A stretch of 64,000 nt of DNA from Acidobacteriaceae bacterium (GTDB lineage Bacteria; Acidobacteriota; Terriglobia; Terriglobales; Acidobacteriaceae), in the NCBI GenBank assembly GCA_030041435.1, contig JASHNW010000101.1, positions 1 to 64,000 on the forward strand, given 5' to 3'. Below the pieces are notes generated by a model, which was given only the letters and a program-made list of their open reading frames with translations, was not told the DNA's origin and searched no databases. Below are positions 3,042-21,167 of the stretch, piece by piece (position 1 is the stretch's first letter; every line of letters starts with the position of its first letter). Made by a program: the position numbers and the translations under genes.

Positions 3042-3084
3042 AGCGCATCCTCAATCGCTGTTTTCTGGCAGCTGGGACGAAAAT

Positions 3085-3114
3085 GAAACGGCCGGCAGCG
3101 CTGCCGGCCGTTTC
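3085..3114. terminator. Bidirectional terminator (30-bp perfect palindrome)
   Basis: GAAACGGCCGGCAGC is followed directly by its exact reverse complement. It lies between the convergent YXWGXW gene and aldehyde dehydrogenase gene. T-rich stretches flank it on both sides (TTTCGTTGTG on plus, TTTCATTTTCG on minus), so it should terminate both transcripts. Confidence 0.8.
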
Positions 3115-3194
3115 GTTGTGCATACCGCACCTGCAAAATGGCGCGGGCGGCGGCTCTGGGCCTTTTCCGCCCGCTCTCTGGGGACACCCTGCGA

Positions 3195-4697
3195 TCAAAG
3201 CGCCACGGTGACAGCTTTGATCTCGGTGTAGTTGTGCAGCACCTCTTCGCCCATCTCGCGGCCCCAGCCGGATTGTTTATATCCGCCGAAGGGCAGCGAG
3301 GCGTCGAACACGTTGTGGCAGTTCACCCACACCGTGCCGGCACGCAGGCTGCGCGCCACCTTGTGAGCCAGTGAGAGGTTCTGCGTCCAGACCGAAGCGG
3401 CCAGCCCGTATACCGTATCGTTGGCGCGCTTCACGATGCGATCCACGTCTTCATCGGAGAAGGGAACCGCACAGACCACGGGACCGAAGATCTCCTCCTG
3501 GACGACCTTCATCCCCGGATTGGTGTTGGTCAGCACAGTGGGCCGCACGAAGTAGCCGCGCTCGAATCCGGAGACGGGACCGCCGGCGGTGATCTTCGCG
3601 CCCTCGCTGATGCCGGACTCGATGTAGCCGATCACTTTCTGGTACTGCTCGTCGCTGACCAGCGGTCCCATCTGGCAGGCGGGATCGAGACCCGGAGCGA
3701 GCTTGATCTCCTCGGCAACATGGCTGACGCCTTCTACCACCTGATCGAAGACCTTCTCGTGCACGTAAAGACGCGACCCCGCGCAGCAGCACTGTCCGTG
3801 ATTGAAAAAGATGGCGCTGGCTGTGCCCGCGATGGCCTGATCGATGCGGGCATCGGGGAAGACGATGGCCGGCGATTTGCCGCCCAGTTCGAGCGTGACC
3901 TTCTTCAGATTGCCCGCAGCCGCTTTGACAATGAGCTTGCCGACTTCGGTCGAGCCGGTAAAGGCCACCTTGTCGACCAGGTCGTGCGCGGCCAGCGGCG
4001 CACCTGCGCCTTCGCCGTATCCGGTGAGAACGTTGACGACACCTGGCGGGAAGCCGGCTTCGTCAATCAGCTGTGCGAGGCGCAGCCCGGAGAGCGGCGT
4101 CTGCTCGGCGAGTTTCAGCACCACCGTGCAGCCGCAGGCGAGCGCGGGAGCCAGCTTCCACGCCGCCATCAGCAGCGGAAAATTCCACGGGATGATCTGC
4201 GCGACCACGCCGATGGGCTCGCGCAGGGTGTAGGAATGGAAATCGTATCCGGCCGACAGCGGCAGGGTCGATCCGGAAATCTTGGTGGCCCAGCCGGCCA
4301 TGTAGCGGAACATGTCAACGGTGAGAGGCGCGTCAGCGACCCGCGCGACCGAGAAGGGTTTGCCGTTGTCGAGCGATTCGAGCTCGGCAAACTCGTCGTT
4401 GTTCTGTTCGATCAGGTCGGCGAGCTTCCACAGCAGCCGGCCGCGCGCAGAGGGCGCCATGCGCACCCACTGGCCGTCGTCGAAGGCGCGGCGCGCGGCG
4501 AGCACCGCGCGGTTAACGTCCTCTTCTTCGGCTTCGGGGACATGCGTGATCACGTCGCCTGTGGCGGGATTGTAGACGGGGAAGGTCTTGCCGGAGGCCG
4601 CGTGAACAAAGCGGCCGTCGATGTACATGAGGTGGCGGCTGGAGACGAATTCAGCGGTGGCGCCGCTGACACGGGGATCGACGGTGAGGGTAGCCAT
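3195..4697 (-). CDS. NAD(P)-dependent aldehyde dehydrogenase
   Basis: 500-residue ALDH superfamily enzyme that oxidises an aldehyde to the carboxylate, presumably in the cytoplasm. Visible landmarks are the Rossmann motif FTGSTEVGKLI, the catalytic-base motif VTLELGGKSP (Glu270), the nucleophile motif GQCCCAGSR (middle Cys304), and EEIFGPVVC near the C-terminus. The 34-residue Glu-Cys spacing matches classical ALDH1/ALDH2 enzymes, as does the length. The frame is open further upstream to 4949, but the ATG at 4697 has a GAGGTC Shine-Dalgarno and the true family N-terminus, and the longer version would overlap the gene ending at 4886. The exact substrate (betaine, phenylacetaldehyde or general aldehydes) cannot be told. 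Confidence 0.93.
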   Translation of the reverse strand: MATLTVDPRVSGATAEFVSSRHLMYIDGRFVHAASGKTFPVYNPATGDVITHVPEAEEEDVNRAVLAARRAFDDGQWVRMAPSARGRLLWKLADLIEQNNDEFAELESLDNGKPFSVARVADAPLTVDMFRYMAGWATKISGSTLPLSAGYDFHSYTLREPIGVVAQIIPWNFPLLMAAWKLAPALACGCTVVLKLAEQTPLSGLRLAQLIDEAGFPPGVVNVLTGYGEGAGAPLAAHDLVDKVAFTGSTEVGKLIVKAAAGNLKKVTLELGGKSPAIVFPDARIDQAIAGTASAIFFNHGQCCCAGSRLYVHEKVFDQVVEGVSHVAEEIKLAPGLDPACQMGPLVSDEQYQKVIGYIESGISEGAKITAGGPVSGFERGYFVRPTVLTNTNPGMKVVQEEIFGPVVCAVPFSDEDVDRIVKRANDTVYGLAASVWTQNLSLAHKVARSLRAGTVWVNCHNVFDASLPFGGYKQSGWGREMGEEVLHNYTEIKAVTVAL

Positions 4698-4885
4698 AGG
4701 ATTTGACCTCGCGTGCAACCGGTCGCAGTTTGGCGCTGGCTCCCAGATGGGCTGACCGAGCCGGAATCCCGGAGGAACTCGCACCAATCCTTTCCGGGAC
4801 CGCCACGTGCCGGATTTTGCACGCGAAAACACTACCACCGCGGCTTGTGCATTGGCCAGGGGGCGGGGCAGATGCAGCCTCGATA

Positions 4886-5635
4886 TCAATTTTCCCCTTT
4901 GGCAGCAACCGGAGGGCCAATCCAAACGTCGCATCCGCCCCCCCGACATGTGTACGTTGTGTCGAAACTTGGGCCAGTGCCTGCAACGGTGATTTGGGAC
5001 AGGTGATCGCAGCGCGTATGTTCGCCGGTTTTCTTACCACAGGTCAGGACATCGAATCGCAGGAGCGAGTAACCGTCGATCGTCGTATCGCTGCCGCCCC
5101 CTTTGGAGAGGTCAAGGTTAAATTGGCTTGCGTCCCCGCTCACCGCCGCCAGATACAGCGTGTTCGCATTAATTGTGCCTCCGTTCTTACATGCATAGTT
5201 GCTTAGGTTCGTGCAAATCGTCAGCCAGTTGTTGCTTGATGTGTCCGCAGTACCATCCTGGCCACGGAAATATAGAGTGATCGTCCAGTTAGTCGAAATT
5301 TGAGAGGATGTGTATATCCCCTCGGTGCCGCCGTTCGGAATTCCCTCGATGGCTATCTGGGTGTTGGGAGTGTTCGAATCTTCCCATACCCAGAGGGCAC
5401 TCGGGTATGGCTGAGTCCACGCGTCCAGTGTCAGGTTCTCCACCGATCCGCCGCGCACCGTTACCGGCGAATCGTTCGGAGCGGAACCGACCACCTTCGG
5501 TTGCAGGGCGACTGCAATTCGGTGCAGGTCATCATCTCCTTTCAGGAGTGACTGGTTGGATTCATACGAGACCCAAAGTACACCGAGCGCGACTAGCAGA
5601 CACAGCACGGCGATTACAGAATTCAATCGATGCAT
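4886..5635 (-). CDS. Membrane-anchored Cys-containing protein, unknown function
   Basis: 249 residues, not recognised. Residues about 5-25 form a single hydrophobic segment (SVIAVLCLLVALGVLWV), likely an uncleaved anchor or signal. The rest is a polar, Asn/Thr/Ser/Gly-rich domain with paired cysteines (TICTNLSNYAC, LTCGKKTGEHTRC, TYTCRGGGC), consistent with a disulphide-stabilised periplasmic or surface domain. An AGGAAG Shine-Dalgarno precedes the ATG. Codon and base use look less GC-rich than in neighbours, which could indicate transfer. It lies upstream of, and in the same direction as, the aldehyde dehydrogenase but 188 bases away, so co-transcription is uncertain. Confidence 0.65.
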   Translation of the reverse strand: MHRLNSVIAVLCLLVALGVLWVSYESNQSLLKGDDDLHRIAVALQPKVVGSAPNDSPVTVRGGSVENLTLDAWTQPYPSALWVWEDSNTPNTQIAIEGIPNGGTEGIYTSSQISTNWTITLYFRGQDGTADTSSNNWLTICTNLSNYACKNGGTINANTLYLAAVSGDASQFNLDLSKGGGSDTTIDGYSLLRFDVLTCGKKTGEHTRCDHLSQITVAGTGPSFDTTYTCRGGGCDVWIGPPVAAKGEN

Positions 5636-5845
5636 TGCGGCTTCCTGGCGTGGCGGGAGAGCAGGGTCCCTGCCTGGAGATTGAAAATCAAGCCTGGAAA
5701 TATAGGAGGGGAGAATTAGTGAGAACGAAGCTTGGCATAACTCACCGACGATGTCAACAAATAAGTCGGTATTAGCGATGAATATCTTGTTGCCGGCTGC
5801 GGGGTCCCTCTCGCAACTGCCGGTGCGCTTCCGGAGCGCACGCGA

Positions 5846-8638
5846 TCAGCCCAGGCTCCAGCGCAGCGGTTTCCGCGCATCGCCTGGGCCGGTGAGTTCA
5901 ATAACACCGCCGGCCAGCCGTTTCACGAGCACCTTCGCTCCGTTCACTTCGCCGTAGGTGACGGCCAGTGCCTCCTGGGACGGCAACGCGATGTGCAGCG
6001 TCCAGACGCCGCTTCGCGCCGGAGCATACCAGCCTTCGTACCGGCCTTCGCTGGAGCGCAAGATGCCGAGCAGCGGCGATTCGAACCGGTACGACGCAGC
6101 GGGCAGCGCCGGCCGCAACGTGACGCCGTGTTCCGTAAAGTCGATCCCGAGCAGCTTCGTCGCGGAGTAAAGATAACACGCGTGGGCGTGCAGATTGAGG
6201 ACGGGAAAATCCGTGCCGTGAAAATGTGGGTCGTCCACCGTCGCGCCCGACTGCTTGCTGAAGGCGGAGTTCCACGAGTCTGTGCCACTCCAGATGCCGT
6301 ACCAGATCGCGGGATAGGCCTCGGCGTGGACGGCGAGCGAATTCTTCTTCCATTCATCCCACGCCATGGCGGGATCGACGTCAGCCAGCGCCCAGACCAG
6401 CGTCTGGTTGAGCGATGGCCAGACGCCACCGCGGACGCAGGTTCCGGGTGGGAACATGCCGGGCTTCATCATGTCCGGACCCTGGCTCATCTGCGCAGCG
6501 CCCAGCGGTCCCGGGCGAAGCAGGCGGTTCATCGTCTGCACGAGGGCGCGGCTTTGCTCCGGCGAAGTAACGCCGCCGAGGATCGCCCAGGGCTGCGGCT
6601 CGATCCACAACGTATCTTCTCCCAGCCAGCCGAGTTTGGGGCCGAGCCAGCAGCGCTTGAGCCACTGGCCCGTCCATTGCATGCGTGCGGCCTGGCGGCT
6701 GGACTCGGCCGACTGCCGCAGCTCTGCTGCGAGATCGGCTCTGCCGCCCGCGTACTGCAGCATCCGCGCGTACTCGTCAAAGACCCAGGCCGACATGGCA
6801 GAGTTGAGAACGCTCTCGCCAACCTTCGCGCACTCCGCGAAATCGGACCCTGCCCACGTGCCCAGCAGCCCGTCGTTCCAGTCGTCGCTCAGCATGCGGA
6901 CGATGCCGTGCTCGCCCACGCCCACGTCGCGGATCTGATGGCGATAGCAGCATGCGAGCAGGTTGCGGACCGTGTCGCTGCCGCCAGCCGAACCGCTGAC
7001 GCGTGCGGCAATCTTCTCATCAAGAAAATCCACATCGCGCGTCGCCAGCACATATTCGCTGGCCGTCCACAGCAGCCACAACGGCAGATCGCTGGCGTTA
7101 TCCGCGGTCATCGGGGCAACCACGCCGTGCCCCGTGATGGCGTAGGGAACCGAGCCGTCCTCGCGGACTTCGCTGAGCGTGTAGCGCAGCACGCTGCGCA
7201 CGATTTCCGGATCGCTGAAGAGGAAGGGCAGGCAGTGCTGCAGGGGATCGCGCGCCGCGCCCTGGAAACCCATGACGTACTGATAGAAGCCGCCCTGATT
7301 CAGGATGTGCTGGCCGAAATAGTCGTCGAAAGTGAGGCTGCTGCGCAGGTAGTAGTGATTCCAGGCAGTCTCGCGGGCGATCCACGGCTCGGCAGCGACG
7401 GCAAACTGCAGCCCGTGGCGCTTCCACTCGGCGCAGGATGCGGCAAGGGTCTGCGCGGCGCCTGGCTGGTAGCGGCCGATCAGCGCGTCCAGTTCGAAGC
7501 CCGCGGGGAGATAGCCGTAGAGGAAGTACAGCGTGCGTTGCTCGCCGGGCTGGAGCGGTAGATTGCGCTCGAGCAACAGCGCGGTATGCGGGCCGGTGCT
7601 GCCGAGGTTGCCGTCGAGCGGACGCGCGAGGCCATCCGGGCTGGCTGCTCCGCCCGTGCCGAAGAAGGCCTGACCGTCAGTGCTGAACCCAGTAGCGGGC
7701 GCATCGAGGGAGACCAGGAAGGTCGACGGGTAGTCGGAGCATTCGAAGGAAGCGCCGGGCTGAGGCTCTTTCACCGGCGCTACAAAGCCGTTGGGCACCC
7801 TTGCAAGCTGTTGGCGGATGCGCTGCCACGCCGCGTCTTCCTCGGGAGCATGGCCGGGGAAATGGCGAGATTCGAGCAGGCCGCGATTCCCGCCGATGGG
7901 CTGAACCTGGTGCGTGCAGCGTTCGCCTGCGCGGCGCCGCAGCTGGCAGGGACTGCCGATGCCGGTCCACGACTCGACGAAGTCGCGAAACGAGAATTCA
8001 TAGGGCTGGCAGCCCCAGTACTCGACCCAGCGCGCGGTTGCGGGTTGCGATCCGCGATTCGTGATCGTGACCTGAGAGAGCAGGACGGGATCGTCGCCGA
8101 AGGGAGCGGAGATAACCTGGTCGACGGACCACTTTGCGCCGCTGACGCGCCTGCGAAAATAGCCGATCCCGAAGATCCGCTCGAAGCCGGCGTGGCTGCC
8201 GGAGTAGTACGTCGCCAGGGTTTCGCTGCCGTCGGTGAGCCAGCCAATGCCGCCGGCGAACTGGCTGTTGCCCGGATCGAAATCGTTGAGGAATTTCGGA
8301 GCGCCTTCGTCCTGGCGAACACGCACGGCTCCGTAGTTGGAGGCGAGCGCGACGATGCGGTCGTTGCCCACCTGGTGGATGTGCTCAGTGGCGCCGAGTA
8401 TGCCGGGCGTGACCGGAGTGTTGGCGGCGGGGTCCGTCGTCTGGTCGCAAGTGTAGAGATAGGCGGGCAGGCCGAACTCGTCTTCGCACCAGGCGCCGAA
8501 GTGGCCGGAGCCGAAGGGTTTTGCGTCCGCAGACGACGGGGAAGGCTGGTCGATGGGCGGTTGCATGGCGAACAGGCCAGGGCTGGTCATGGCCGAAGCC
8601 AGAGAACTGAGCAGGAAATCTCGGCGGTTGATGGGCAT
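5846..8638 (-). CDS. Tat-exported GH94/GH36-like glycosyl hydrolase
   Basis: 930 residues. The N-terminus carries a twin-arginine signal (NRRDFLLSSLASA), so it is exported folded. The middle contains a beta-sandwich-like region and the C-terminal half an (alpha/alpha)6 barrel with a SDDWNDG motif (Asp586/Asp589), the place of the catalytic Asp in GH94 phosphorylases and related cyclic-glucan-synthase domains. The tail (HGVTLRPALP) is the family's closing beta domain. Related proteins are usually annotated as GH36-type glycosyl hydrolase domain proteins or cellobiose-phosphorylase-like. Classical GH94 phosphorylases are cytoplasmic because they need phosphate, so an exported member may be a hydrolase. 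Substrate unknown. Confidence 0.8.
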   Translation of the reverse strand: MPINRRDFLLSSLASAMTSPGLFAMQPPIDQPSPSSADAKPFGSGHFGAWCEDEFGLPAYLYTCDQTTDPAANTPVTPGILGATEHIHQVGNDRIVALASNYGAVRVRQDEGAPKFLNDFDPGNSQFAGGIGWLTDGSETLATYYSGSHAGFERIFGIGYFRRRVSGAKWSVDQVISAPFGDDPVLLSQVTITNRGSQPATARWVEYWGCQPYEFSFRDFVESWTGIGSPCQLRRRAGERCTHQVQPIGGNRGLLESRHFPGHAPEEDAAWQRIRQQLARVPNGFVAPVKEPQPGASFECSDYPSTFLVSLDAPATGFSTDGQAFFGTGGAASPDGLARPLDGNLGSTGPHTALLLERNLPLQPGEQRTLYFLYGYLPAGFELDALIGRYQPGAAQTLAASCAEWKRHGLQFAVAAEPWIARETAWNHYYLRSSLTFDDYFGQHILNQGGFYQYVMGFQGAARDPLQHCLPFLFSDPEIVRSVLRYTLSEVREDGSVPYAITGHGVVAPMTADNASDLPLWLLWTASEYVLATRDVDFLDEKIAARVSGSAGGSDTVRNLLACCYRHQIRDVGVGEHGIVRMLSDDWNDGLLGTWAGSDFAECAKVGESVLNSAMSAWVFDEYARMLQYAGGRADLAAELRQSAESSRQAARMQWTGQWLKRCWLGPKLGWLGEDTLWIEPQPWAILGGVTSPEQSRALVQTMNRLLRPGPLGAAQMSQGPDMMKPGMFPPGTCVRGGVWPSLNQTLVWALADVDPAMAWDEWKKNSLAVHAEAYPAIWYGIWSGTDSWNSAFSKQSGATVDDPHFHGTDFPVLNLHAHACYLYSATKLLGIDFTEHGVTLRPALPAASYRFESPLLGILRSSEGRYEGWYAPARSGVWTLHIALPSQEALAVTYGEVNGAKVLVKRLAGGVIELTGPGDARKPLRWSLG

Positions 8639-8915
8639 CAGGCGATCCGGTTCGCGGCGGGTGCGGCAGGGAACCGGCCGCCGAGAGCCAATTTATACCC
8701 TGCAGGACCCGGAGAACGAAGCGTTGTGGGGGTCTTCAGCACGCAGCAGCATTTCCCTCACGAGGTGCAAGTGGACGGCGAAGCAGAGCGGCGTGCGCAC
8801 GGCCGTATCTGTTCTCGCTTGCTTCCCTCTGTACGGGCAACTGCCGGCGTGGACTCTCTTTGCTTTACCATGGCTGAAGATTCACGACCTCATCTTTCTG
8901 CAAAGGCAGAACAAC

Positions 8916-11408
8916 GTGCTCGCGGCGGACCTGGTTCTGTGTGGCCGATTCAAGGTGCTTTCCTGCCTGGGAGAGGGAGGGATGGGGCAGGTATACGAGG
9001 CCCTGGACCTGGAACTGGGCGAGAGCATCGCCATCAAGGCCATCAAGGCTGAGATTGCGGGGTCGCCGGGCACCATAGCGCGATTCAAGCGTGAGGTCTA
9101 CGCCACGCGCAAGATCACCCACCCCAATGTCTGCCGTACCTTCGATCTGGAGTGCCACACGCCCCCCGGCGCCCGCGCGGGCGAGCCGCGCGATTCGATC
9201 CTGTTTCTCACCATGGAGCTGCTGCACGGCGAGACGCTGGGGCAGCGCCTGCAGCGGTCCGGGCCGCTTCCACCCGATCAGGTCTACGTCCTGGCCATCC
9301 AGGTGGCGGGCGCGCTGGCCGCCGCGCACGAAGCCGGCATCATCCACTGCGATCTGAAGCCGGCCAACATTTTCCTGACCGGGTCGGAGTCGAAGCTGCG
9401 GGCCGTGGTCACCGATTTCGGGATCGCCCGCGTGAATCCTCTGTATGACCAGACCTCCGTCTCCGGCTCGCATGAAGCGGCGACGCGCCCGGGCGAAATC
9501 ATCGGCACTCCTGATTACATGGCCCCGGAACAGTTTCGGACGCGGGAATGCACGCCGGCGACCGATCTCTATTCCTTTGGGTTGATTCTGTACGAGGCGC
9601 TGACCGGAGTCCGAGGGTTCGCCGACAGCCCCTCCGAGCAGACCGTCTGGAATAAGCTCGCCAGCGCTTCAGAAGCCGCTGCAGGTCAGCGGCCCGCCAT
9701 CCCGAAAGAGTGGAGCTATCTGCTCTCAAGGTGCCTGCAGATCGACCCCGCCAACCGCTTCAGCCACGTGGATCAGGTGATGGACGTGCTGGCGGCGATG
9801 CCGGCCCCGCATGGGCGGATTGCGACTTCAGGAAGCCGCAGAGCGCTGCGCACCCCAGCTACCGCGACGCTGCCTTCCTCCAGGAGCGCGGTGCGCAGCT
9901 GGCTCGATCGCAATCGGCGGCTCGCGCTGGCTGCGGCATCGATTCTGGTGCTCGCCGCCGGAATCCTGGGGTATGGCAAGCTGCGATCCTCTGCGCGGAC
10001 CGCGGCCGCGATCCCTTCCGTCGCGGTGCTGCCGATTGCGAGTTCCGGCAACGATCCGCAGGCGGCTGCGCTCGCCGAGAACATGGCCGAGGACCTGACC
10101 AACGATCTGTCGCAGGTGTCGGGCATCCGGATTCCCTCCGAGGCGGTCGTGCGCACCCTCGGCAATCCCAGCGACGTGCGCACTGCAGGACGCCAGCTGA
10201 AAGTCGATGCCGTGGTGAGCGGATCCCTGATGAAGGCCGGGGACGGAATGCGCCTGGTGATGAATCTGGTGGACGCGCAGTCAGGCGCGCAGATCTGGGG
10301 GCAAAGCTACGACTGCAAGCCGGCGGATTGCGCCTCTCTGGACAGCGATATCGCCCAGGAAGTCGCTTTTCGGCTTCAGCTCAAGGTGGATGGTTCCAAT
10401 CCGCGCGCCATCCGGCAGCACTCGCGGATTCCCGCCGCGGAAGCTGCGTACCAGAAGGGCGAACAGGCGCTGGCGGAACATACAGGGGATGGGTTTGCCC
10501 GCGCGGTCGATTCTTTTCAGCAGGCGATCGATGCCGATCCCCAGGATGCTCCGGCCATGGCGGAACTGGCGCACAGCTACGCGCTCATGGCTTACAACTA
10601 CAATCGGCCGGAAGCGCCGCTGGCCTTGCTGAACCAGGCCGAGCAGACGGCTCGCCGCGCTCTGCAGCTCGACAGCACATCGGCGGAAGCTTACAGCTCG
10701 CTGGCCGAAGTGGAAGTGCTGAAGGACTTCAACTGGATCGCCGCGGAGAAGGATTTCAAGCGGGCTATCGAGCTGGACCCCTCCTACCTGCCTGCCCATG
10801 TATCCTACGCGCTCCATTTGCTCACGCCGCTCGGACGCTTTGCCGAGGCGCGCGCGCAATACGGATATGCGAACCGCATGGCGCAGAGCAACCTGAGCGC
10901 CGAAATGAGCATGGCCATCACCGATTTTTATGCGCGTCAAAATGCCGCTTCGATCCAGCGGCTGGAAGCGATCGAAAAAAGCGCGCCTGGCAACTCGGCG
11001 TTCTCCGAAGGCCTTGCCGACAACTACGTCGCGATGGGCGAGCCGGAAAAGGCCCTCCCGGTGCTGATGAGCTTCAATCCAGACTCGACCGACGTGCAAT
11101 CCGTGAGGGACGCTCTGCTCGGGATTGTCTACGCGAAAATGGGCCGCAAGGCGGATGCGCTCCGCCAGCTGGACAAGGTTGAAACCGCGGAAAGGTTTCA
11201 TCTGAACTACCCGCTCGCAACCCTGCTGGCCGCGGTAGGGTATAACGACAAGGCAGTCGATTATCTGGAAAGGTCTGCCGCGAATCGCGAGACCGATATT
11301 CTCTTCATGGCAGTGGACCCGATGCTGGACCCTCTGCGGTCGAACCCCCGTTTTCATGCTCTGGAAGTCAGGCTGAACCTCATTACGGATACGGAGAATA
11401 CACAATGA
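8916..11408 (+). CDS. Transmembrane Ser/Thr protein kinase with TolB-like and TPR domains
   Basis: About 830 residues from the proposed GTG. A Hanks-type kinase domain spans about 8-280: Gly-rich loop LGEGGMGQVYEA, Lys41 in AIKAIK, catalytic loop HCDLKPAN (Asp146), DFG at Asp167 and GTPDYMAPEQ. One membrane helix follows (about 334-355, LALAAASILVLAAGILGYG), then a TolB/FlgO-like domain (VAVLPIASSG onward, about 370-480) and TPR-like helical repeats to the end. The kinase faces the cytoplasm and the C-terminal modules the periplasm. The frame is open back to 8553, but that part overlaps the opposite glycosidase gene and has no family sequence. GTG 8916 with AAAGG upstream fits the domain start but is not certain. 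Its TGA overlaps the next ATG, so it heads the YcaO/TfuA cassette. Confidence 0.88.
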   Translation: MLAADLVLCGRFKVLSCLGEGGMGQVYEALDLELGESIAIKAIKAEIAGSPGTIARFKREVYATRKITHPNVCRTFDLECHTPPGARAGEPRDSILFLTMELLHGETLGQRLQRSGPLPPDQVYVLAIQVAGALAAAHEAGIIHCDLKPANIFLTGSESKLRAVVTDFGIARVNPLYDQTSVSGSHEAATRPGEIIGTPDYMAPEQFRTRECTPATDLYSFGLILYEALTGVRGFADSPSEQTVWNKLASASEAAAGQRPAIPKEWSYLLSRCLQIDPANRFSHVDQVMDVLAAMPAPHGRIATSGSRRALRTPATATLPSSRSAVRSWLDRNRRLALAAASILVLAAGILGYGKLRSSARTAAAIPSVAVLPIASSGNDPQAAALAENMAEDLTNDLSQVSGIRIPSEAVVRTLGNPSDVRTAGRQLKVDAVVSGSLMKAGDGMRLVMNLVDAQSGAQIWGQSYDCKPADCASLDSDIAQEVAFRLQLKVDGSNPRAIRQHSRIPAAEAAYQKGEQALAEHTGDGFARAVDSFQQAIDADPQDAPAMAELAHSYALMAYNYNRPEAPLALLNQAEQTARRALQLDSTSAEAYSSLAEVEVLKDFNWIAAEKDFKRAIELDPSYLPAHVSYALHLLTPLGRFAEARAQYGYANRMAQSNLSAEMSMAITDFYARQNAASIQRLEAIEKSAPGNSAFSEGLADNYVAMGEPEKALPVLMSFNPDSTDVQSVRDALLGIVYAKMGRKADALRQLDKVETAERFHLNYPLATLLAAVGYNDKAVDYLERSAANRETDILFMAVDPMLDPLRSNPRFHALEVRLNLITDTENTQ

Positions 11409-11695
11409 CTCGTGAAGAGATGCTGAGCGAAATCGGGCTCAGCGATGGGGATTTCCGCGATTTTTTGACCAAGGTCGCTGCCTTTCGCAGTTCGCTCAAC
11501 CCGCAGCAGCTGGCCTTCTACAACCGCAGCATGCCCACGGTCGCCGAGGTTGCGCAGGCCTTCGGGCCGGATGTTTCCATACAGGATGTCGAGAACCTGT
11601 TTGCCGAAGCGCCGCCCATCAACGGCATCGCTTGCATTTTCTGGGGACAGGGGCCAGGCCATCGTCGCTGGCCGGGCGGTCACGATCCTAAATAG
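11405..11695 (+). CDS. Candidate RiPP precursor peptide
   Basis: 96 residues, no recognised family. The ATG overlaps the kinase stop (ATGA) and has its own CGGAGA Shine-Dalgarno 8 bases upstream. Residues 1-66 look like a folded, leader-like helical segment (MLSEIGLSDGDFRDFL, then a second helix around 45-66). Residues 68-96 differ sharply: Gly-, Pro-, His- and Trp-rich with one Cys (Cys77), for example IACIFWGQGPGHRRW. It is followed one base later by a YcaO gene and then TfuA, the pair that thioamidates peptide backbones in RiPP pathways and on methyl-coenzyme M reductase. The precursor role is inferred from size, composition and position. It could instead be a small accessory or substrate-binding protein. 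Confidence 0.6.
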   Translation: MTREEMLSEIGLSDGDFRDFLTKVAAFRSSLNPQQLAFYNRSMPTVAEVAQAFGPDVSIQDVENLFAEAPPINGIACIFWGQGPGHRRWPGGHDPK

Positions 11696-11696
11696 C

Positions 11697-12977
11697 ATGG
11701 CGCATGCCGCCGCCAGGCTCCGGAAGGTTCCGGGCACGCAGCGCACGGTAACGGCCGAGGAGACATTCGCGCGGGCACAACCCGTCGCGAAGTCCCTCGG
11801 CGTCACCCGCCTTGCGGACATTACCGGCCTCGACCGCGTCGGCATTCCCACCTGGAGCGCCGTCGTGCCCAGGTCCGAAGACGGCCTCTCCGTTTACAAC
11901 GGCAAGGGCCTGCGCGCGATCGACGCCAAGGCCGGCGCTTTGATGGAGGCTATCGAGCGCCAGACGGCGCTCAAAACCCGGCTGCCGCTTGTCTTCGGAA
12001 GCTTCGAGGAACTGCGGCGTAACCACGAGGTATTAGATCCGAGAGATCTGAAGGAGATCCTCGCTCCGGATTATTCCGAGACGCGCACCTACTCGTGGGT
12101 CGCCGGGCGTGAACTATTCTCCGATCGCGAGGTCCTGGTTCCGGCAAAATTCGCCGGCTATCTGTGGCACGACCTGCCTCATCCTCCCTGCTTTTCCTGG
12201 AGCACCACCAACGGCATAGCAGCGGGCAATGTGCGCGAAGAGGCCATCTGCCAGGCGCTCTGCGAACTCATCGAGCGCGACGCCTGGACGCTGGCAGAAA
12301 TCGGCGCGCATCTGCTGCCGTGGGTCCGGCATCGCGTCGCGGACCCGCAGAGTCTTGCCTCTGCGGCTGACGACCATGAGGTCTTTCCCTGCATCGACCT
12401 CGACAGCGATCCAGCCGTCGAGCTTTTCGAACGGGCCGGTCTCCACCCCATCGTTCATGACATCACCTCCGACCTCGCCATTCCCACCGTGCTTGCCGCC
12501 GTCGCTGACGAAACGCTTCCGGGATTTCCCATGGTGCATTGCGGCCTCGGAACGCATCCTGACGCGCAGGTGGCCGCCCGCAGAGCGCTGACGGAAGCGG
12601 CGCAGTCGCGCTGCGTCGACATTCAGGGGGTGCGCGAGGATCTCGAGCCGGTCGATGCGCCGCCTTGCCAGCTCAACCTGCACACGCGCCGCATCCGCAG
12701 CGTGAATCGCAGTCAGTGGCAACTCGGCCAGTCGAGGCTGCGGCGGCGGCTTGCCGATCTTCCCTCCGCTGTGTACGACGACGTGCAACAGGACCTCGAC
12801 CACGTCCTGTCGCGGCTTCAGGCCTGTGGCATCCGTCAGGTCATCGTCGTCGACTTCCCCCTTCCCGATGCGCCGTTTGCTGTGGTGCGGGTCATCGTGC
12901 CCGCGCTCGAAACCTGGTCGATCACCCACGGCCCTCTGGGCGGGCGAGCGATGGATTTCTGGCGCCGCCATGCGTGA
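11697..12977 (+). CDS. YcaO-domain protein (ATP-dependent backbone amide modification)
   Basis: 426 residues. YcaO enzymes use ATP to activate a peptide amide, giving azolines or, with TfuA, thioamides. Visible ATP/Mg-site landmarks are GALMEAIER (about residues 83-91), REEAICQALCELIERDAW (about 180-197) and the LTEAAQSR...GVRED motif (about 298-315). The N-terminal pattern (GTQRTV, TAEETFARAQP, GVTRLADITGLDRVGIP) is that of the TfuA-associated YcaO clade. The start is the ATG one base after the preceding stop. It has no strong Shine-Dalgarno, so translational coupling is likely. An open frame extends upstream to 11550 but only by overlapping the small peptide gene. It overlaps TfuA by 8 bases. 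No separate partner protein with a recognition element was seen. Confidence 0.9.
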   Translation: MAHAAARLRKVPGTQRTVTAEETFARAQPVAKSLGVTRLADITGLDRVGIPTWSAVVPRSEDGLSVYNGKGLRAIDAKAGALMEAIERQTALKTRLPLVFGSFEELRRNHEVLDPRDLKEILAPDYSETRTYSWVAGRELFSDREVLVPAKFAGYLWHDLPHPPCFSWSTTNGIAAGNVREEAICQALCELIERDAWTLAEIGAHLLPWVRHRVADPQSLASAADDHEVFPCIDLDSDPAVELFERAGLHPIVHDITSDLAIPTVLAAVADETLPGFPMVHCGLGTHPDAQVAARRALTEAAQSRCVDIQGVREDLEPVDAPPCQLNLHTRRIRSVNRSQWQLGQSRLRRRLADLPSAVYDDVQQDLDHVLSRLQACGIRQVIVVDFPLPDAPFAVVRVIVPALETWSITHGPLGGRAMDFWRRHA

Positions 12978-13578
12978 GATCGCCGTCTACCTTGGTCCCA
13001 GCCTGGACGTCGGCTTCGCGCGATCCATTCTCGACGCCGAGTATCTGCCTCCCATCAGGCGGGGAGACCTCGAGAAGCTTGCGCCTGAGGTGCGCTGCGT
13101 CGGCATCGTCGACGGCGAGTTCTATCAGAACCTAGCTGTCTCTCCAAAGGAGATACTTCCGCTGCTGGATCGCGATGTGCAGGTCTATGGGGCGTCCAGC
13201 ATGGGAGCCCTGCGCGCGGCCGAGCTCTGCTCCCACGGCATGGTAGGCGTGGGAAAGATCTTCGCATGGTACCGCGATGGTGTGATCGATGCGGACGATG
13301 AAGTGGCGCTCACCTACGACCCTGAGACCTATCGGTCCTTGTCGGAGCCGCTCATTAACATCCGCTTTGTGCTGCGAGACGCAGTGCATCGCGGCATTAT
13401 CGAGTCGTCGCAGGCCGGCGAAGTCCTGGAAGCTCTTAAAGGTGTCTACTTTCCCGATCGATCGTATCAGCTCGTGAGCCGGCTTTGTCCGCAGCTGGGT
13501 GATTTCCTGAACCTGCATCGCCGCAGCCAGAAGGCCGAAGACGCCGAATTGTTGCTACGTACGATTGTCGGCAGTTAA
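12970..13578 (+). CDS. TfuA-like protein, thioamidation partner of YcaO
   Basis: 202 residues matching the TfuA family: N-terminal VYLGPSLDV, central VGIVDGEFYQ and the signature GASSMGALRAAEL, followed by GMVGVGKIF and a DDEVA motif. TfuA proteins were first seen in trifolitoxin biosynthesis. They are thought to deliver sulfide to the YcaO-activated amide, yielding a thioamide (as on McrA and in thioviridamide- and thiovarsolin-type RiPPs). The ATG at 12970 overlaps the YcaO stop by 8 bases. The gene ends with a T-rich stretch (TTAAGATTTTTTGG), but no clear hairpin precedes it. No exporter, leader peptidase or other tailoring gene follows in the cassette. Confidence 0.88.
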   Translation: MREIAVYLGPSLDVGFARSILDAEYLPPIRRGDLEKLAPEVRCVGIVDGEFYQNLAVSPKEILPLLDRDVQVYGASSMGALRAAELCSHGMVGVGKIFAWYRDGVIDADDEVALTYDPETYRSLSEPLINIRFVLRDAVHRGIIESSQAGEVLEALKGVYFPDRSYQLVSRLCPQLGDFLNLHRRSQKAEDAELLLRTIVGS

Positions 13579-13588
13579 GATTTTTTGG

Positions 13589-13618
13589 TTGACATGGACC
13601 GGAGAGAAGGTTCATAGT
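13589..13618 (+). promoter_or_regulatory. Sigma-70-like promoter of the redox operon
   Basis: A consensus -35 TTGACA (13589-13594) is followed after 18 bases by CATAGT (13613-13618), a 4/6 match to the -10 box. It sits just after the TfuA stop and about 190 bases before the first redox gene, so the transcript would have a long leader. Confidence 0.5.
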
Positions 13619-13643
13619 GGCCCTCGCTGATGTTTTGCAGTTG

Positions 13644-13658
13644 GTTACCTTAGGTAAC
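13644..13658. promoter_or_regulatory. Inverted repeat, possible operator or leader hairpin
   Basis: GTTACC-TTA-GGTAAC is a perfect 6+6 inverted repeat about 25 bases beyond the predicted -10 box of the redox operon. It may be a regulator site or a leader stem. The rest of the leader to 13805 contains a short CCGG-TGTG-CCGG stem but no riboswitch class I can recognise. Confidence 0.3.
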
Positions 13659-13805
13659 TGCCTCGGTTCGTATGTTGCCGAATGGCCCCGTCTCTATTAA
13701 ACAGGATGTAATCTAACTTGCCTCACGGCTCCATGCCGCGGCCGCGCCCCGCTGTATTCGCCGGTGTGCCGGGGAACTGTAACCGGAATCAGGGAGGAGT
13801 CGGAA

Positions 13806-15191
13806 GTGAAGTGCAGAATCTTGCTGGTCTTCGCCGCTGCTTATATTCTGGCGCAATTCGCACTGTTTGCAGGAGTCTCGAAGAACGATAAGTCAGCTGC
13901 TCCCCCGATTAATCCGCCTGTAACCTGCAACACCATCAAACCCGACACGCCCATTACTCCAGTACTCCTGAGCAGTGGCATGCCGTGCACTGTATCGGCC
14001 GTCGCACCCTTCGATCTTAAGAACCTGCAGCGCGCCTTCGATTTCAATTCGTGGCTTTCTTTCCTCGCTCTCAACGCCCCGGCTTCGGGCGGTGTCATTG
14101 GCAAAGATGCGCCCACGGTCTGGGAGAACTGGGAAGAAGTAGAAAATGTCTTTCTTGCCGGGGGCCGCGCGCCGGCTCCGTGGGGTCACGCCGCACCCCG
14201 CCCCTCTCCCTGCCGTAACCTCCCCGACGAACCGATTCTGCAGATGGTGGGGAAGACGCCCGGCGTGTTGACCGATGTTATTCAGCCGTTCAATACCGGT
14301 CCGCTGATCGATCAGAACGGTCAGTACGTTCGATTTGAGATTGTCCTCAACCGTCCGATGTTCGAGTACATCAACCAGAATCGCCTTTACAACCAGCCTG
14401 GCCAGCAGGCGTTCAGCGGTCCCATCGATTTTCCTGAGGGCTCCCTCGATGCCGGCCAGAGCACCGGCGCCATGGGCGCCATTGTCATCAAGGCCACGTG
14501 GAAGCTGCTCGATCCGGCGAAAGACAACCCTGCCGACTTTCACACCGCAAACGTGCTGATCTATGACCCGCCGCTCGCGAATCCGCCTGCCCCCGCAAAG
14601 TGTTATCCGGCCACCGTGGGCCTGGTGGGACTCCACATCGTGCACCGCACCGACAAGGAACCCCAGTGGCTGTGGGCCACTTTCGAACACGTGGACAACG
14701 ATCCGACGCAGGCTGAGGTGAACGGGAAGCAGTTGCAGGCGCACTACAACTTTTTTGATCCAGCCTGCACCTCCTGCGCCGTGAACACGCAGCCGCCGCG
14801 CCCATGGAACCCCAGCCAGTCTCCCTTCCCGGACGGCTTCCACAGCCAGATAGTGAGAGAGACCGGCCTGATGGACGACGCCAAAGAACTGAACGCCGCA
14901 TTCCAGGCAATCCTGCAGGGCACGGTATGGCAGCACTACATGCTGGTGAGCACGCAGTGGCCCACCCAGCCGACCAGTCCCACGGATCCGAACGGTGTTC
15001 CGTTTCCGGTATATCTCGCCAACACCACCATGGAGACCTATATCCAGGGATCGGTTCCAAATTCCTCGTCCAGCTGCATGATGTGCCACGGAAACGCGAC
15101 GGATACCACGGGGCGGCACGCAAACTTCACCTATGTGTTGGAACGGGCGCAGCCGGCGGTGAAGAACAATCCTCCTCCCGCAGTTCCGTAG
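13806..15191 (+). CDS. Exported single-haem c-type protein of unknown family
   Basis: 461 residues from a GTG with an excellent Shine-Dalgarno (GGGAGGAG, 6-base spacing). An N-terminal signal peptide (about 1-25) shows export. The body is not a recognised domain, has several Pro-rich loops and scattered Cys, and near the C-terminus carries one haem-attachment site CMMCHG (Cys424, Cys427, His428). It opens a five-gene operon with an FAD dehydrogenase and a multicopper oxidase, so an electron-transfer or scaffold role is likely by context. The gene ending at 19203 has the same layout (signal, roughly 400-residue unknown body, single CXXCH about 60-100 residues from the end). Confidence 0.75.
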   Translation: MKCRILLVFAAAYILAQFALFAGVSKNDKSAAPPINPPVTCNTIKPDTPITPVLLSSGMPCTVSAVAPFDLKNLQRAFDFNSWLSFLALNAPASGGVIGKDAPTVWENWEEVENVFLAGGRAPAPWGHAAPRPSPCRNLPDEPILQMVGKTPGVLTDVIQPFNTGPLIDQNGQYVRFEIVLNRPMFEYINQNRLYNQPGQQAFSGPIDFPEGSLDAGQSTGAMGAIVIKATWKLLDPAKDNPADFHTANVLIYDPPLANPPAPAKCYPATVGLVGLHIVHRTDKEPQWLWATFEHVDNDPTQAEVNGKQLQAHYNFFDPACTSCAVNTQPPRPWNPSQSPFPDGFHSQIVRETGLMDDAKELNAAFQAILQGTVWQHYMLVSTQWPTQPTSPTDPNGVPFPVYLANTTMETYIQGSVPNSSSSCMMCHGNATDTTGRHANFTYVLERAQPAVKNNPPPAVP

Positions 15192-15252
15192 CGCGCCCGG
15201 GGGCGACGACGACGTGTTTCGCAACGAGCACAGAGTGGAGCGCAAAGTAAAG

Positions 15253-15753
15253 ATGAGCACCGCACCTTCATCGATGGATTTGTTTGTGGGATTATCCTCC
15301 GTATTAACCGGAGTCGCCGCTGACAAGCTGGCACCGCCGCTGGACACGATCAACATCAAACAGACTTATTACCAGTTTGTGCAGGGGCAGGCGGGTCAGA
15401 CCTTCCAGCAGTTACTGCAGATTTACAGCCAGAATCAGAACCAGCCTCCGCAGCAGATCGGAGACATCATCCTTAACCAATCCGGAGACGCTGTGCGCTA
15501 CCTGGCGCGCAGCATCATGCTCATGTGGTATCTGGGCAGTTGGTACGATCCAGCGGAGTTACAGAAATATAATGGGCCCAATCCGCCGCCGGGGATGGTT
15601 CCGGCACAGCAGGTCATCTCGGCAGAAGCCTACACCCAGGGCTGGGTGTGGAGCGTTGCTCAGGCGCATCCCATGGCTTACAGCAATTTCGCCTTCGGCT
15701 ACTGGTCTGCCAACCCGCCCTCGCTCGCTGACTTCGTGGGAGGTGGAGCATGA
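15253..15753 (+). CDS. Small subunit of membrane-associated FAD dehydrogenase (sorbitol-dehydrogenase type)
   Basis: 166 residues. The sequence resembles the small or gamma subunit of bacterial FAD-dependent sugar and alcohol dehydrogenases (FAD-SLDH family): MDLFVGLSSVLTG near the start, LARSIMLMWYLGSW in the middle, and a C-terminal half ending with SANPPSLADFV. In known systems this subunit is needed for folding, Tat hitch-hiking export and stability of the GMC-type large subunit. It lacks an obvious Tat motif of its own here. The ATG at 15253 is chosen because the family sequence starts there, although the Shine-Dalgarno is weak. The stop overlaps the next gene's ATG (ATGA), so both subunits are translationally coupled. 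Confidence 0.78.
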   Translation: MSTAPSSMDLFVGLSSVLTGVAADKLAPPLDTINIKQTYYQFVQGQAGQTFQQLLQIYSQNQNQPPQQIGDIILNQSGDAVRYLARSIMLMWYLGSWYDPAELQKYNGPNPPPGMVPAQQVISAEAYTQGWVWSVAQAHPMAYSNFAFGYWSANPPSLADFVGGGA

Positions 15754-17606
15754 GTCCGGCACCAGGCACATCGTGGGATATTGTGATTGTCGGCGCCGGT
15801 GTGGCAGGGGCCATGATCGCAAAACGCGCTGGACTCGCAGGCAAGAAGGTGCTGATTCTCGAGTCCGGCGCCGGCCTGCCGACGAATAACAACGACTTCA
15901 TGAGCCGCTATTACACCGCGCCGGCCAAGGTGCCCGAGTCTCCGTATACCCCTGACATCTTCGGCTCACCGGCATCCGGCAAATTTCTGGCCGATCCTAC
16001 GCTGCTGAATGCGCCCCGACCCACCGTGCTGAGTCTGGGGGCGCAAAACTGGCAGGATCCGACCCAGAGCTACCTTATCCAGCGTGGACCGCTGGCCTTT
16101 GCGAGCAGTTACGAGCGGATCGCCGGCGGAACCATGCGCCACTGGCTTGGCACCAGCCTGCGCTTCGTGCCAAACGACTTCAGGGTACAGTCTGTCTACA
16201 AGCAGTTAGTGGACTGGCCTGTCGGTTATAGCGACGTCGAACCCTGGTACCAACAGGCCGAGGCTGAGATCGGTGTTTCCGCCGCGGTGGCCGATCAGGG
16301 CTATCTTGGCATTACTTTCCCCACCGGCTACAACTACCCGATGAACCCCATCCCTCCCTCGCTGGTCGATGCCGCCATCAGTCAGGGGGTTGATGGCATG
16401 TCTTTCGATGGCACAACCCTTGCTGTCACCAGCACGCCCGCGGGACGCAATTCTCAGCCCTATCAGAATCGTCGCGTATGCGCAGGCAACACGAATTGCA
16501 TTCCCATTTGTCCCATTCAGGCGAAATACGATCCGAGCGTGACGCTCGCAGCGGCTCTTGACACCGGCAATGTCACGATCATGACGCAGACGGTCGCCAG
16601 CGACATCATCGTGGACAGTAATGGGCTCATCAGCCAGATCAACTACATTCAGTATGCGCAGCCCGGCGGCCCGCCGACCGGAACGGGCAGTGTTACAGGC
16701 AAAGTATTCGTTGTCGCCGCCCATGCGATTGAAACGCCCAAGCTGCTGCTGATGTCCAAAAACCAGGGACGAACTCCATCAGGCGTCGCAAACTCCTCGC
16801 TTTTAGTCGGGAAGAACCTGATGGATCACCCCCTCTATCTCTCCTGGGCCCTTATGCCGAAGCCAGTGTTCGGCTTTCGAGGCCCGCTTTCCACCTCGGG
16901 CATCGAGTCACTGCGCGACGGCGCATTCCGCAGCCAGCGCGCCGCGTTCCGCATTGAGATCGGAAATGAAGGCTGGAATTTCCCCATCAACGACCCGTAC
17001 ACGACTACGGTCGATTTCATCAACGGGATCAATCAGAGCGGGCTGAATCCGAACGGACCGGGGCGGCCACAGGCCCTCTTTGGACCGGCGCTGGTTGCGG
17101 CGCTAAATTCCTCGCTGACCCGGCAGTTCCGGCTCGGTTGTCTGGTCGAGCAGTCGCCGGACACGACAAACTCAGTGACATTAGCTGCGGAAACGGATCA
17201 CCTTGGCCTTCCGCGTCCGCAAATCACCTATAACCTGTCGGACTATACGAAGGCGGGCATGATTGCGGCGGTGCAGGCCTCTGACGCCATCTATGCGCAG
17301 TTAAACGCCCAGCAGTTTACAACGCAGCCTGACTCTGGCGATCCCTGTACCTTCGAGGTAACCATAAATGGCAAGCAAAGGCTGATTAAGTATTTCGGCT
17401 CCGGGCATGTCGTCGGCACGTACTGCATGGGGACCAGCGGCGGTAACTCGGTCGTGAATTCCGAGCAGCGGTCCTGGGACCACTCGAATTTGTTTCTCGT
17501 CGGCAGCGGCGTGTTTCCCACTGTGGCAACGGGAAACCCAACCCTGACCATCGCGGCTCTCGCTTTGTGGGCGGCGAACACGATTCTGACCAAAGATCTG
17601 GCATGA
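15750..17606 (+). CDS. GMC-family FAD dehydrogenase large subunit with 3Fe-4S Cys motif
   Basis: 618 residues. An N-terminal FAD-binding Rossmann motif VIVGAGVAGA (Gly15-Gly20), a GGTMRHWLGTSLR segment and the C-terminal GMC active-site region with His553 (GSGHVVGTYCMG) and Asn596 (TGNPTLT) are all visible. Cys244, Cys250 and Cys254 (CAGNTNCIPIC) have the same spacing as the three 3Fe-4S ligands of the Burkholderia FAD-glucose dehydrogenase catalytic subunit. It should therefore oxidise a sugar or alcohol and pass electrons through the cluster to a haem protein. The coupled small subunit and the two neighbouring CXXCH proteins fit that chain. No signal peptide is seen, so export would rely on the partner. 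Confidence 0.88.
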   Translation: MSPAPGTSWDIVIVGAGVAGAMIAKRAGLAGKKVLILESGAGLPTNNNDFMSRYYTAPAKVPESPYTPDIFGSPASGKFLADPTLLNAPRPTVLSLGAQNWQDPTQSYLIQRGPLAFASSYERIAGGTMRHWLGTSLRFVPNDFRVQSVYKQLVDWPVGYSDVEPWYQQAEAEIGVSAAVADQGYLGITFPTGYNYPMNPIPPSLVDAAISQGVDGMSFDGTTLAVTSTPAGRNSQPYQNRRVCAGNTNCIPICPIQAKYDPSVTLAAALDTGNVTIMTQTVASDIIVDSNGLISQINYIQYAQPGGPPTGTGSVTGKVFVVAAHAIETPKLLLMSKNQGRTPSGVANSSLLVGKNLMDHPLYLSWALMPKPVFGFRGPLSTSGIESLRDGAFRSQRAAFRIEIGNEGWNFPINDPYTTTVDFINGINQSGLNPNGPGRPQALFGPALVAALNSSLTRQFRLGCLVEQSPDTTNSVTLAAETDHLGLPRPQITYNLSDYTKAGMIAAVQASDAIYAQLNAQQFTTQPDSGDPCTFEVTINGKQRLIKYFGSGHVVGTYCMGTSGGNSVVNSEQRSWDHSNLFLVGSGVFPTVATGNPTLTIAALALWAANTILTKDLA

Positions 17607-17691
17607 CCTTCGAAAGGAGATTCTGCGCTCTCCTGCAGCCTGAGGGCGCCTGAGATTTATAACCCATTTGTAACATCAACAGGAGCAGATA

Positions 17692-20957: not shown

Positions 20958-20964
20958 GGAAACT

Positions 20965-20978
20965 CCCCGGCGCCGGGG
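20965..20978 (+). terminator. Possible weak terminator of the redox operon
   Basis: CCCCGGCGCCGGGG is a perfect 14-bp palindrome 7 bases after the oxidase stop. It has no T run, so it may only be an mRNA-end stem. A second GGATGG/CCATCC hairpin lies near 21050-21075. Confidence 0.3.
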
Positions 20979-21167
20979 CGCGTGTCCTGAGCCGGAATTC
21001 CATCATCGTCTGCTCGGAGTGGGACCACGCTCCGCAGGTGCGAGGCCGCGGATGGAGGCTCCGGGCCGCCATCCGGGAGGCCAATTCCCGGCGTGGCGAT
21101 CCTGACCGCTCATGGGCGTGCCGGATTCGCCAGTCGAAGGCCGCCCGGCTCGCGGAGGCAACCGGCA

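What the first reader, a model, noticed from the sequence alone, without database searches (positions are those of the whole stretch)
11405..11695. Peptide with helical leader-like half and Gly/His/Trp/Cys-rich tail
Residues 1-66 look like a structured leader. Residues 68-96 change sharply to IACIFWGQGPGHRRW-type sequence with one Cys, two His, two Trp and six Gly. This two-part layout, the private Shine-Dalgarno and the position directly before YcaO fit a RiPP precursor with a roughly 25-residue core. The family is not one I recognise.
Basis: inference. Interest (0 to 1): 0.72.

Follow-up and report, generated by a model that had tools for sequence, protein, structure and literature searches.

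The report
Kinase-linked thioamide peptide precursor family
A small gene in a soil acidobacterium very probably encodes the raw material of a chemically modified peptide: its front half is a conserved handle, its back half is a rapidly changing tail, and in every copy found it sits between a membrane sensor kinase and the two enzymes that would put sulphur into its backbone.

Summary
The 96-aa ORF at 11405-11695 is real. Nine distinct homologues (window plus eight acidobacterial loci) share one order: membrane Ser/Thr kinase, peptide, YcaO, TfuA; only these four genes recur in 9 of 9 loci. No convincing homologue without YcaO was found. Residues 1-67 are conserved (z 99.7 against shuffles) and predicted as a five-helix domain; the tail (68-96) is barely alignable (z 2.0) and predicted disordered, though 8 of 9 tails keep a short hydrophobic run. 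The adjacent TfuA makes backbone thioamidation of the tail most likely (inferred; no chemistry). The YcaOs form one clade beside an actinobacterial one that includes Asanoa ishikariensis, a thiovarsolin-network species. No Pfam or NCBIfam model recognises the leader. The unexpected part is the kinase: over 388 family genomes its sensor region scores best against the six other known carriers, and its distances track YcaO (r 0.89). The kinase domain alone does not form one clade. What the kinase and the mature peptide do is unknown. Filed as a new precursor family and variant architecture of a known kind, YcaO-TfuA RiPPs.

The parts
8553..11408 (+). Ser/Thr protein kinase, predicted membrane protein: kinase domain (res 134-409), hydrophobic segment (about 457-475), C-terminal TolB_N plus TPR region; first gene in all 9 cassettes
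   Evidence: (motifs, hydropathy)
11393..11396 (+). Shine-Dalgarno-like GGAG, 8 nt before the peptide ATG
   Evidence: Sequence
11405..11605 (+). Leader domain of the precursor, residues 1-67, five predicted helices
11606..11692 (+). Predicted core/tail, residues 68-96, hypervariable and disordered; stop TAG 11693-11695
11627..11644 (+). Hydrophobic run IACIFW (res 75-80); a comparable run is in 8 of 9 tails
11697..12977 (+). YcaO (426 aa), PF02624 233 bits; closest solved relative by sequence is MJ1094
12970..13578 (+). TfuA (202 aa), PF07812 146 bits; start overlaps the end of YcaO

Best explanation
The ORF is a RiPP precursor peptide. Its N-terminal 67 residues are a folded helical leader that presents the C-terminal tail (about 29 residues) to the adjacent YcaO-TfuA pair. 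YcaO activates one or more backbone amides of the tail with ATP and TfuA delivers sulphide, giving a thioamidated core. A housekeeping protease would then free a short, protease-resistant peptide, since no peptidase or exporter recurs in the cassette. The first gene is a membrane kinase that most likely controls or reads out the pathway. Shown: ORF, homologues, leader/tail conservation break, invariant gene order, YcaO and TfuA identity, single YcaO clade, kinase sensor closest among carriers. Inferred: recognition by the leader, thioamide as the modification, cleavage site, any role of the kinase.
For: 9 of 9 homologues in the order kinase-peptide-YcaO-TfuA; TfuA confirmed by Pfam in all nine. 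In an all-against-all comparison of the nine loci, only these four genes (and out-of-frame shadows of them) recur in 9 of 9. Leader z 99.7, tail z 2.0. Helical leader and disordered tail with two different members as query, on the same seven sequences. Nearest solved relatives are MJ1094 and the TfuA 6XP8. The 9 YcaOs form one clade, 100/95. In the 396-genome phylum sample the window and G225 have both peptide and YcaO. YcaO-TfuA pairs thioamidate precursor peptides in characterised pathways (PMC6511847, PMC8153245, PMC13174530; passages, and section 20 of the first).
Against: No product, mass or binding data. No peptidase or exporter in the conserved unit. Only nine family members, so 'hypervariable' rests on few sequences; one tail (L042) lacks the hydrophobic run and is Gly-rich. 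The tails share no residue that would obviously be thioamidated in all. Leader and YcaO identities correlate only moderately (r 0.47; 12 of 5000 permutations as high). G220 has a related YcaO-TfuA pair (40%) without this peptide.
Confidence: 0.8

Rival explanations
1. The peptide is not the substrate but a small adaptor protein that brings another protein to YcaO-TfuA or to the kinase; its tail is only a disordered extension.
For: The leader is predicted to fold, and some YcaOs modify full-size proteins: McrA in archaea (PMC5589413, listing and abstract start only) and uL16 in E. coli (PMC13063428, abstract start only).
Against: The tail is kept in 9 of 9 at 19-38 residues, with a hydrophobic run in 8 of 9; no second candidate substrate recurs in the nine loci. 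A substrate encoded elsewhere in the genome is not excluded.
Confidence: 0.1
2. The kinase is a biosynthetic enzyme that phosphorylates Ser/Thr of the tail for dehydration, as proposed for the phosphotransferase/HopA1-like pair of thioamitides.
For: A phosphotransferase (APH-like) acts with YcaO-TfuA in thiostreptamide S4 biosynthesis (PMC8153245, passages). The Pfam APH model also touches the kinase domain here: 18.6 bits in the window, under its 23.2 cut-off, and above it in L039, L043, L044 and L045 (24.7-35.3 bits).
Against: Pkinase scores far higher over the same stretch (126-156 bits), and the window protein adds a hydrophobic segment and a TolB_N/TPR region. No HopA1-like match among the 8 window proteins scanned. 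The window tail holds no Ser or Thr, and L047's neither.
Confidence: 0.05
3. YcaO-TfuA installs something other than a thioamide (azoline, amidine).
For: Some tails have Cys, Ser or Thr that could cyclise; YcaOs as a superfamily make azolines and amidines (established knowledge; PMC8442711 title and abstract start).
Against: TfuA is adjacent in 9 of 9; the SagD-type model scores 136.5 bits, under its 219.25 cut-off; the L047 tail has no Cys, Ser or Thr and L041 only one Ser.
Confidence: 0.05

Closest known systems
Thiovarsolin-type clusters (VarA, VarY YcaO, VarT TfuA)
   Same: YcaO-TfuA with a short precursor and no dedicated protease (PMC6511847 section 20). The YcaO clade next to the cassette clade holds Asanoa ishikariensis (99/94, midpoint root), a species the paper puts in the thiovarsolin network.
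   Different: The cassette leader profile finds nothing in the Asanoa loci; no APR or GPR in the nine tails; a kinase instead of the var tailoring genes; Acidobacteriota, not Actinomycetota.
Thioamitides (thioviridamide, thiostreptamide S4)
   Same: YcaO-TfuA acting on a C-terminal core (PMC8153245); the hydrophobic make-up of those cores is recalled.
   Different: Of the other thioamitide enzymes, no HopA1-like protein was found among the window proteins scanned, and only four genes recur across the nine loci.
Archaeal McrA-glycine thioamidation pair
   Same: Closest curated models TIGR03266 and NF033432 and closest solved YcaO, MJ1094.
   Different: Below both curated cut-offs (259 of 365 bits; 224.6 of 235.2 bits); here a small peptide is encoded next to the pair.
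ECF sigma / Ser-Thr kinase modules
   Same: An ECF sigma gene lies within the fetched locus in 5 of 9. That such pairs are common in Acidobacteria is recalled.
   Different: No ECF match at E 1e-4 in the 64-kb window nor in L043-L045; no paper linking one to a RiPP cassette seen in the listings.

Membership tests
YcaO-TfuA (thioamidated) RiPP cluster | YcaO gene adjacent to TfuA gene | tested here: met
   PF02624 233 bits and PF07812 146 bits, overlapping genes; TfuA in 9 of 9 loci
YcaO-TfuA (thioamidated) RiPP cluster | Adjacent short precursor with conserved leader and variable C-terminal core | tested here: met
   Nine homologues; leader z 99.7, tail z 2.0
YcaO-TfuA (thioamidated) RiPP cluster | Backbone thioamide in the product | not testable with these tools
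   Needs expression and mass spectrometry
Thiovarsolin family | APR/GPR core in the precursor | tested here: not met
   No APR or GPR in any of the nine tails (listing)
Thiovarsolin family | YcaO in the same clade as Asanoa ishikariensis YcaO | tested here: inconclusive
   Neighbouring clade 99/94, not inside it; that L049 is the paper's Asanoa locus was not checked letter by letter
Thioamitides | HopA1-like/phosphotransferase dehydration pair and AviCys genes | tested here: not met
   Only four genes recur in nine loci; no HopA1 match in the 8 window proteins scanned from 8553 to 19200. Weak APH matches overlap the Pkinase domain
Nif11 / NHLP or other curated leader families | Match to a curated leader model in Pfam or NCBIfam | tested here: not met
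   0 families for the window peptide; for the 9 members only one- or two-member matches at E 0.013 or worse, none a leader model
McrA-glycine thioamidation proteins | NCBIfam equivalog cut-offs | tested here: not met
   TIGR03266 259 of 365; NF033432 224.6 of 235.2 bits
SagD-type TOMM (azoline) clusters | SagD subfamily cut-off | tested here: not met
   TIGR03604 136.5 of 219.25 bits
Known folds (leader domain) | Structural match to a solved fold | tested here: inconclusive
   Best Foldseek E 0.65; best VIA Z 2.0, rmsd 4.5 over 52 residues

The most novel reading that the evidence does not exclude
The cassette is a peptide signalling device: the modified, protease-resistant tail is exported or partitions into the membrane and is read by the TolB_N/TPR sensor of its own dedicated membrane kinase, so a thioamidated RiPP works as a self-ligand of a bacterial Ser/Thr receptor kinase. 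Tail and sensor would then diversify together (not tested), while the kinase domain can be swapped.
Probability: 0.15. Interest if true: 0.8.

Novelty: new variant of a known kind. Interest (0 to 1): 0.55.

Why it matters
By a 2021 survey all then-known thioamidated RiPPs made by YcaO-TfuA came from Actinobacteria, though mining had flagged TfuA clusters in Acidobacteria too (PMC8120280, passage). This gives a concrete, minimal precursor-YcaO-TfuA set in Acidobacteriaceae with a folded leader that no Pfam or NCBIfam model recognises, so it is a good test bed for how YcaO-TfuA pairs find a substrate. The invariant membrane kinase raises a testable question: whether these peptides are signals or sensed products rather than antibiotics.

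Tried and rejected
Plasmid hits to the peptide (8 records, E 0.03-5, Azospirillum and Streptomyces): I opened three of eight (L002-L004). The L002 hit lies in frame inside a 659-aa acyl-CoA synthetase-like ORF, so a chance local likeness; my notebook entry 1 wrongly calls it antisense. The L004 hit falls on the strand opposite an annotated hypothetical gene. L003 carries no annotation and was not analysed; the other five were not opened. Treated as chance.

IMG/VR scan with the peptide: none. Weak hits (45 of 100 genomes at E <= 10, only own and G050 credible; 9 of 396 at E <= 0.01; the seven beyond window and G225 have 17.6-20.9 bits, in long frames or across stops) were dropped as chance; their neighbourhoods were not examined.

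Kinase as one clade: rejected for the whole protein (3 changes, 0% of 200 bootstraps) and for the kinase domain alone (2 changes, 5%); on the kinase domain alone an own-genome paralogue (L146, 194.6 bits) outscores six of the eight other cassette kinases. Only the C-terminal sensor forms one side of a branch (100/100), there against just three paralogues, all from G050. In one search only the top four candidates per genome were scored.

Are other proteins with this sensor followed by small peptides? Six of the eight next-best loci were fetched (G590 and G039 were not). By ORF listing alone, in five no small same-strand ORF and large partner follow; the sixth (G492) is cut by the contig end.

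Known fold for the leader: no useful match; PDB sequence hits, nearly all of the 60 shown to EF-hand proteins (E 0.0044 and worse), taken as chance helix likeness. A riboswitch downstream of TfuA: no Rfam match in the window. Further conserved tailoring genes: none; after the four genes the next most shared is the ECF sigma, 5 of 9.

Full report
OBSERVATION. The ORF 11405-11695 (+) encodes 96 aa exactly as quoted. It starts inside the end of an upstream kinase gene (ATGA, 11405-11408), has GGAG at 11393-11396, and ends one base before the ATG of a 426-aa YcaO (11697-12977), which itself overlaps a 202-aa TfuA (12970-13578). Pfam identifies YcaO (PF02624, 233 bits), TfuA (PF07812, 146 bits) and the kinase (Pkinase, TolB_N, TPR); the peptide has no Pfam or NCBIfam match.

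HOMOLOGUES. A search of 100 relatives found one clear homologue, in G050 (E 4.5e-7); its neighbourhood is kinase, peptide, YcaO, TfuA. A YcaO search over 396 phylum genomes at E <= 1e-60 gave the window, G225 and G220. G225 carries the same order; G220 does not have this peptide. A three-member profile over 398 family genomes found 7 with the peptide at E <= 0.01, and a YcaO scan of named genome contigs returned the 80 best of 342 relatives. Scanning the fetched loci with the profile gave nine distinct members: window; G225; Acidobacteriaceae bacterium KBS 83 (=G050); KBS 89 (=G728); Granulicella sp. L46 (=G619); a lichen MAG (=G647); G745; MAG CP_BM_ER_R8_9 (L044); Terriglobia MAG SRVP_11 (L045). 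G handles were equated with named strains by identical peptides. All nine have the order kinase-peptide-YcaO-TfuA. Comparing all ORFs of 60 aa or more of the nine loci (window 2001-22000, the others 8-18 kb) with each other, these four genes and out-of-frame shadows of them are the only groups present in 9 of 9; an ECF sigma follows with 5 of 9. Gaps kinase-peptide run from -4 to 45 nt; gaps peptide-YcaO from overlap to 29 nt, but 162 nt in G745 (YcaO starts there are the first possible ones). The eleven other genomes of the window's genus lack the peptide at E <= 0.01, as do 60 of 62 genomes of G728's genus. In a phylum sample of 396, only the window and G225 are credible (seven weak rows dropped).

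LEADER AND TAIL. In the nine-row alignment A3, residues 1-67 have mean pairwise identity 0.33 and a mean local score of 99.0 against 23.8 for shuffles (z 99.7; 0 of 200). Residues 68-96 have identity 0.18, 44% gapped cells, and 17.4 against 16.1 (z 2.0; 4 of 200 shuffles as high). Tails are 19-38 residues. Eight of nine hold a run of four or more residues of AVILMFWCTY; shuffled tails average 2.57 and none of 2000 shuffles reaches eight (the alphabet was chosen after seeing the tails). Two AlphaFold2 models, with the window and with the Granulicella peptide as query on the same seven sequences, give the same five helices to residue 67-69 and a disordered tail. No solved fold matches usefully.

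THE ENZYMES. Among solved proteins the window YcaO is most like MJ1094 (E 7e-43) and TfuA most like 6XP8 (E 7e-45), but both fall under the curated McrA-thioamidation cut-offs. Residues E84, E87, E190, E193, Q303 and R305 are invariant in three members; that such residues bind ATP and Mg is recalled. In an 84-row tree the nine YcaOs form one clade (100/95), next to an actinobacterial clade of three Asanoa species and one MAG (99/94), then Nitrososphaerota (midpoint root). Santos-Aberturas et al. place Asanoa ishikariensis in the thiovarsolin network and note no specific protease in the var cluster (PMC6511847: passages, section 20). TfuA delivers sulphide to YcaO in an archaeal system (stated in PMC8153245, passages). 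So thioamidation of the tail is the best-supported chemistry, by inference.

THE KINASE. All nine kinases have a Pkinase domain; the window one has glycine-loop, AIK, HCD (not HRD) and DFG motifs, and a hydrophobic segment near 457-475. Searched with the full kinase, the cassette kinase of each of six other carriers (241-751 bits) beats the best paralogue of the window's own genome (193 bits). Searched with the C-terminal sensor alone over 388 family genomes (228 with matches at E <= 1e-40), the top seven are the seven known carriers in that sample (1014 to 242 bits), followed by 227 bits. Sensor and YcaO identities correlate at 0.89 (0 of 5000 permutations as high); leader-YcaO 0.47 (12), leader-sensor 0.42 (33). 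Against this, whole-protein and kinase-domain trees do not make the nine one clade, and on the kinase domain an own-genome paralogue outscores six of eight other cassette kinases; only the sensor tree does, with few paralogues. So the sensor rather than the kinase domain seems to travel with the cassette. Of six non-cassette loci fetched among the next eight, five show no small peptide and partner behind the gene, and one is cut by a contig end. An ECF sigma gene lies within the locus in five of nine, but not in the 64-kb window.

MECHANISM. Most likely: transcription under control of the kinase (inferred); translation of the precursor coupled to its neighbours (gene overlaps shown in the window, coupling inferred); leader docking on YcaO-TfuA (inferred); thioamidation of one or more amides, perhaps near the hydrophobic run (inferred); release by general proteases (inferred by analogy with thiovarsolins). 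The function of the product is open. The bold reading is that it is a ligand of the cassette's own sensor kinase.

LITERATURE. Malit et al. 2021 counted TfuA-related clusters in Acidobacteria among many phyla, but the passages I saw describe none of them (PMC8120280; its supplement was not available). Searches joining TfuA or YcaO with Acidobacteria or kinase, and one joining Acidobacteria with thioamitide, returned 1, 7, 1 and 6 papers; judged by their listings, plus passages of two, none describes this cassette. Only open-licence papers were searched, so the family may be listed in a supplement or a subscription paper.

Noticed in passing
L040:10837-11049 (G220, another acidobacterial family): A different YcaO-TfuA pair (YcaO 40% identical) with a 71-aa peptide candidate downstream of TfuA; the leader profile does not find it.
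   Followed up: no
L046:5748-5882, L049:5676-5852, L056:5747-5890: Three Asanoa species carry a short peptide before YcaO whose end (DTGCAAFAAP..) is nearly identical, a motif-conserved tail in the neighbouring clade.
   Followed up: partly
L050, L052, L053: Nitrososphaerota carry YcaO-TfuA pairs near this clade without an obvious small precursor within 700 nt before and 1500 nt after YcaO (same strand); their substrate is unclear.
   Followed up: no
L115:7107-7367: A Solirubrobacterales ORF near a YcaO weakly resembles the leader (E 0.49), with an LSPEE-type motif; probably chance.
   Followed up: no
L044:3161-5641, L045:3116-5614: In the two most divergent cassettes the sensor region is close to the family (211-223 bits to the window) but the kinase domain much less so (106 bits), suggesting domain exchange.
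   Followed up: partly
L039:5129-5662, L042:8326-9048, L047:1236-1733: Three loci share a further protein next to the ECF sigma gene, apparently secreted (L039 starts MKNLSIFRTIFVVASLVAG); role unknown.
   Followed up: no
window 13806-17606: Downstream of TfuA lie a 461-aa protein without family, a small FAD-SLDH-like subunit (below cut-off) and a GMC oxidoreductase; not shared with the other cassette loci.
   Followed up: no
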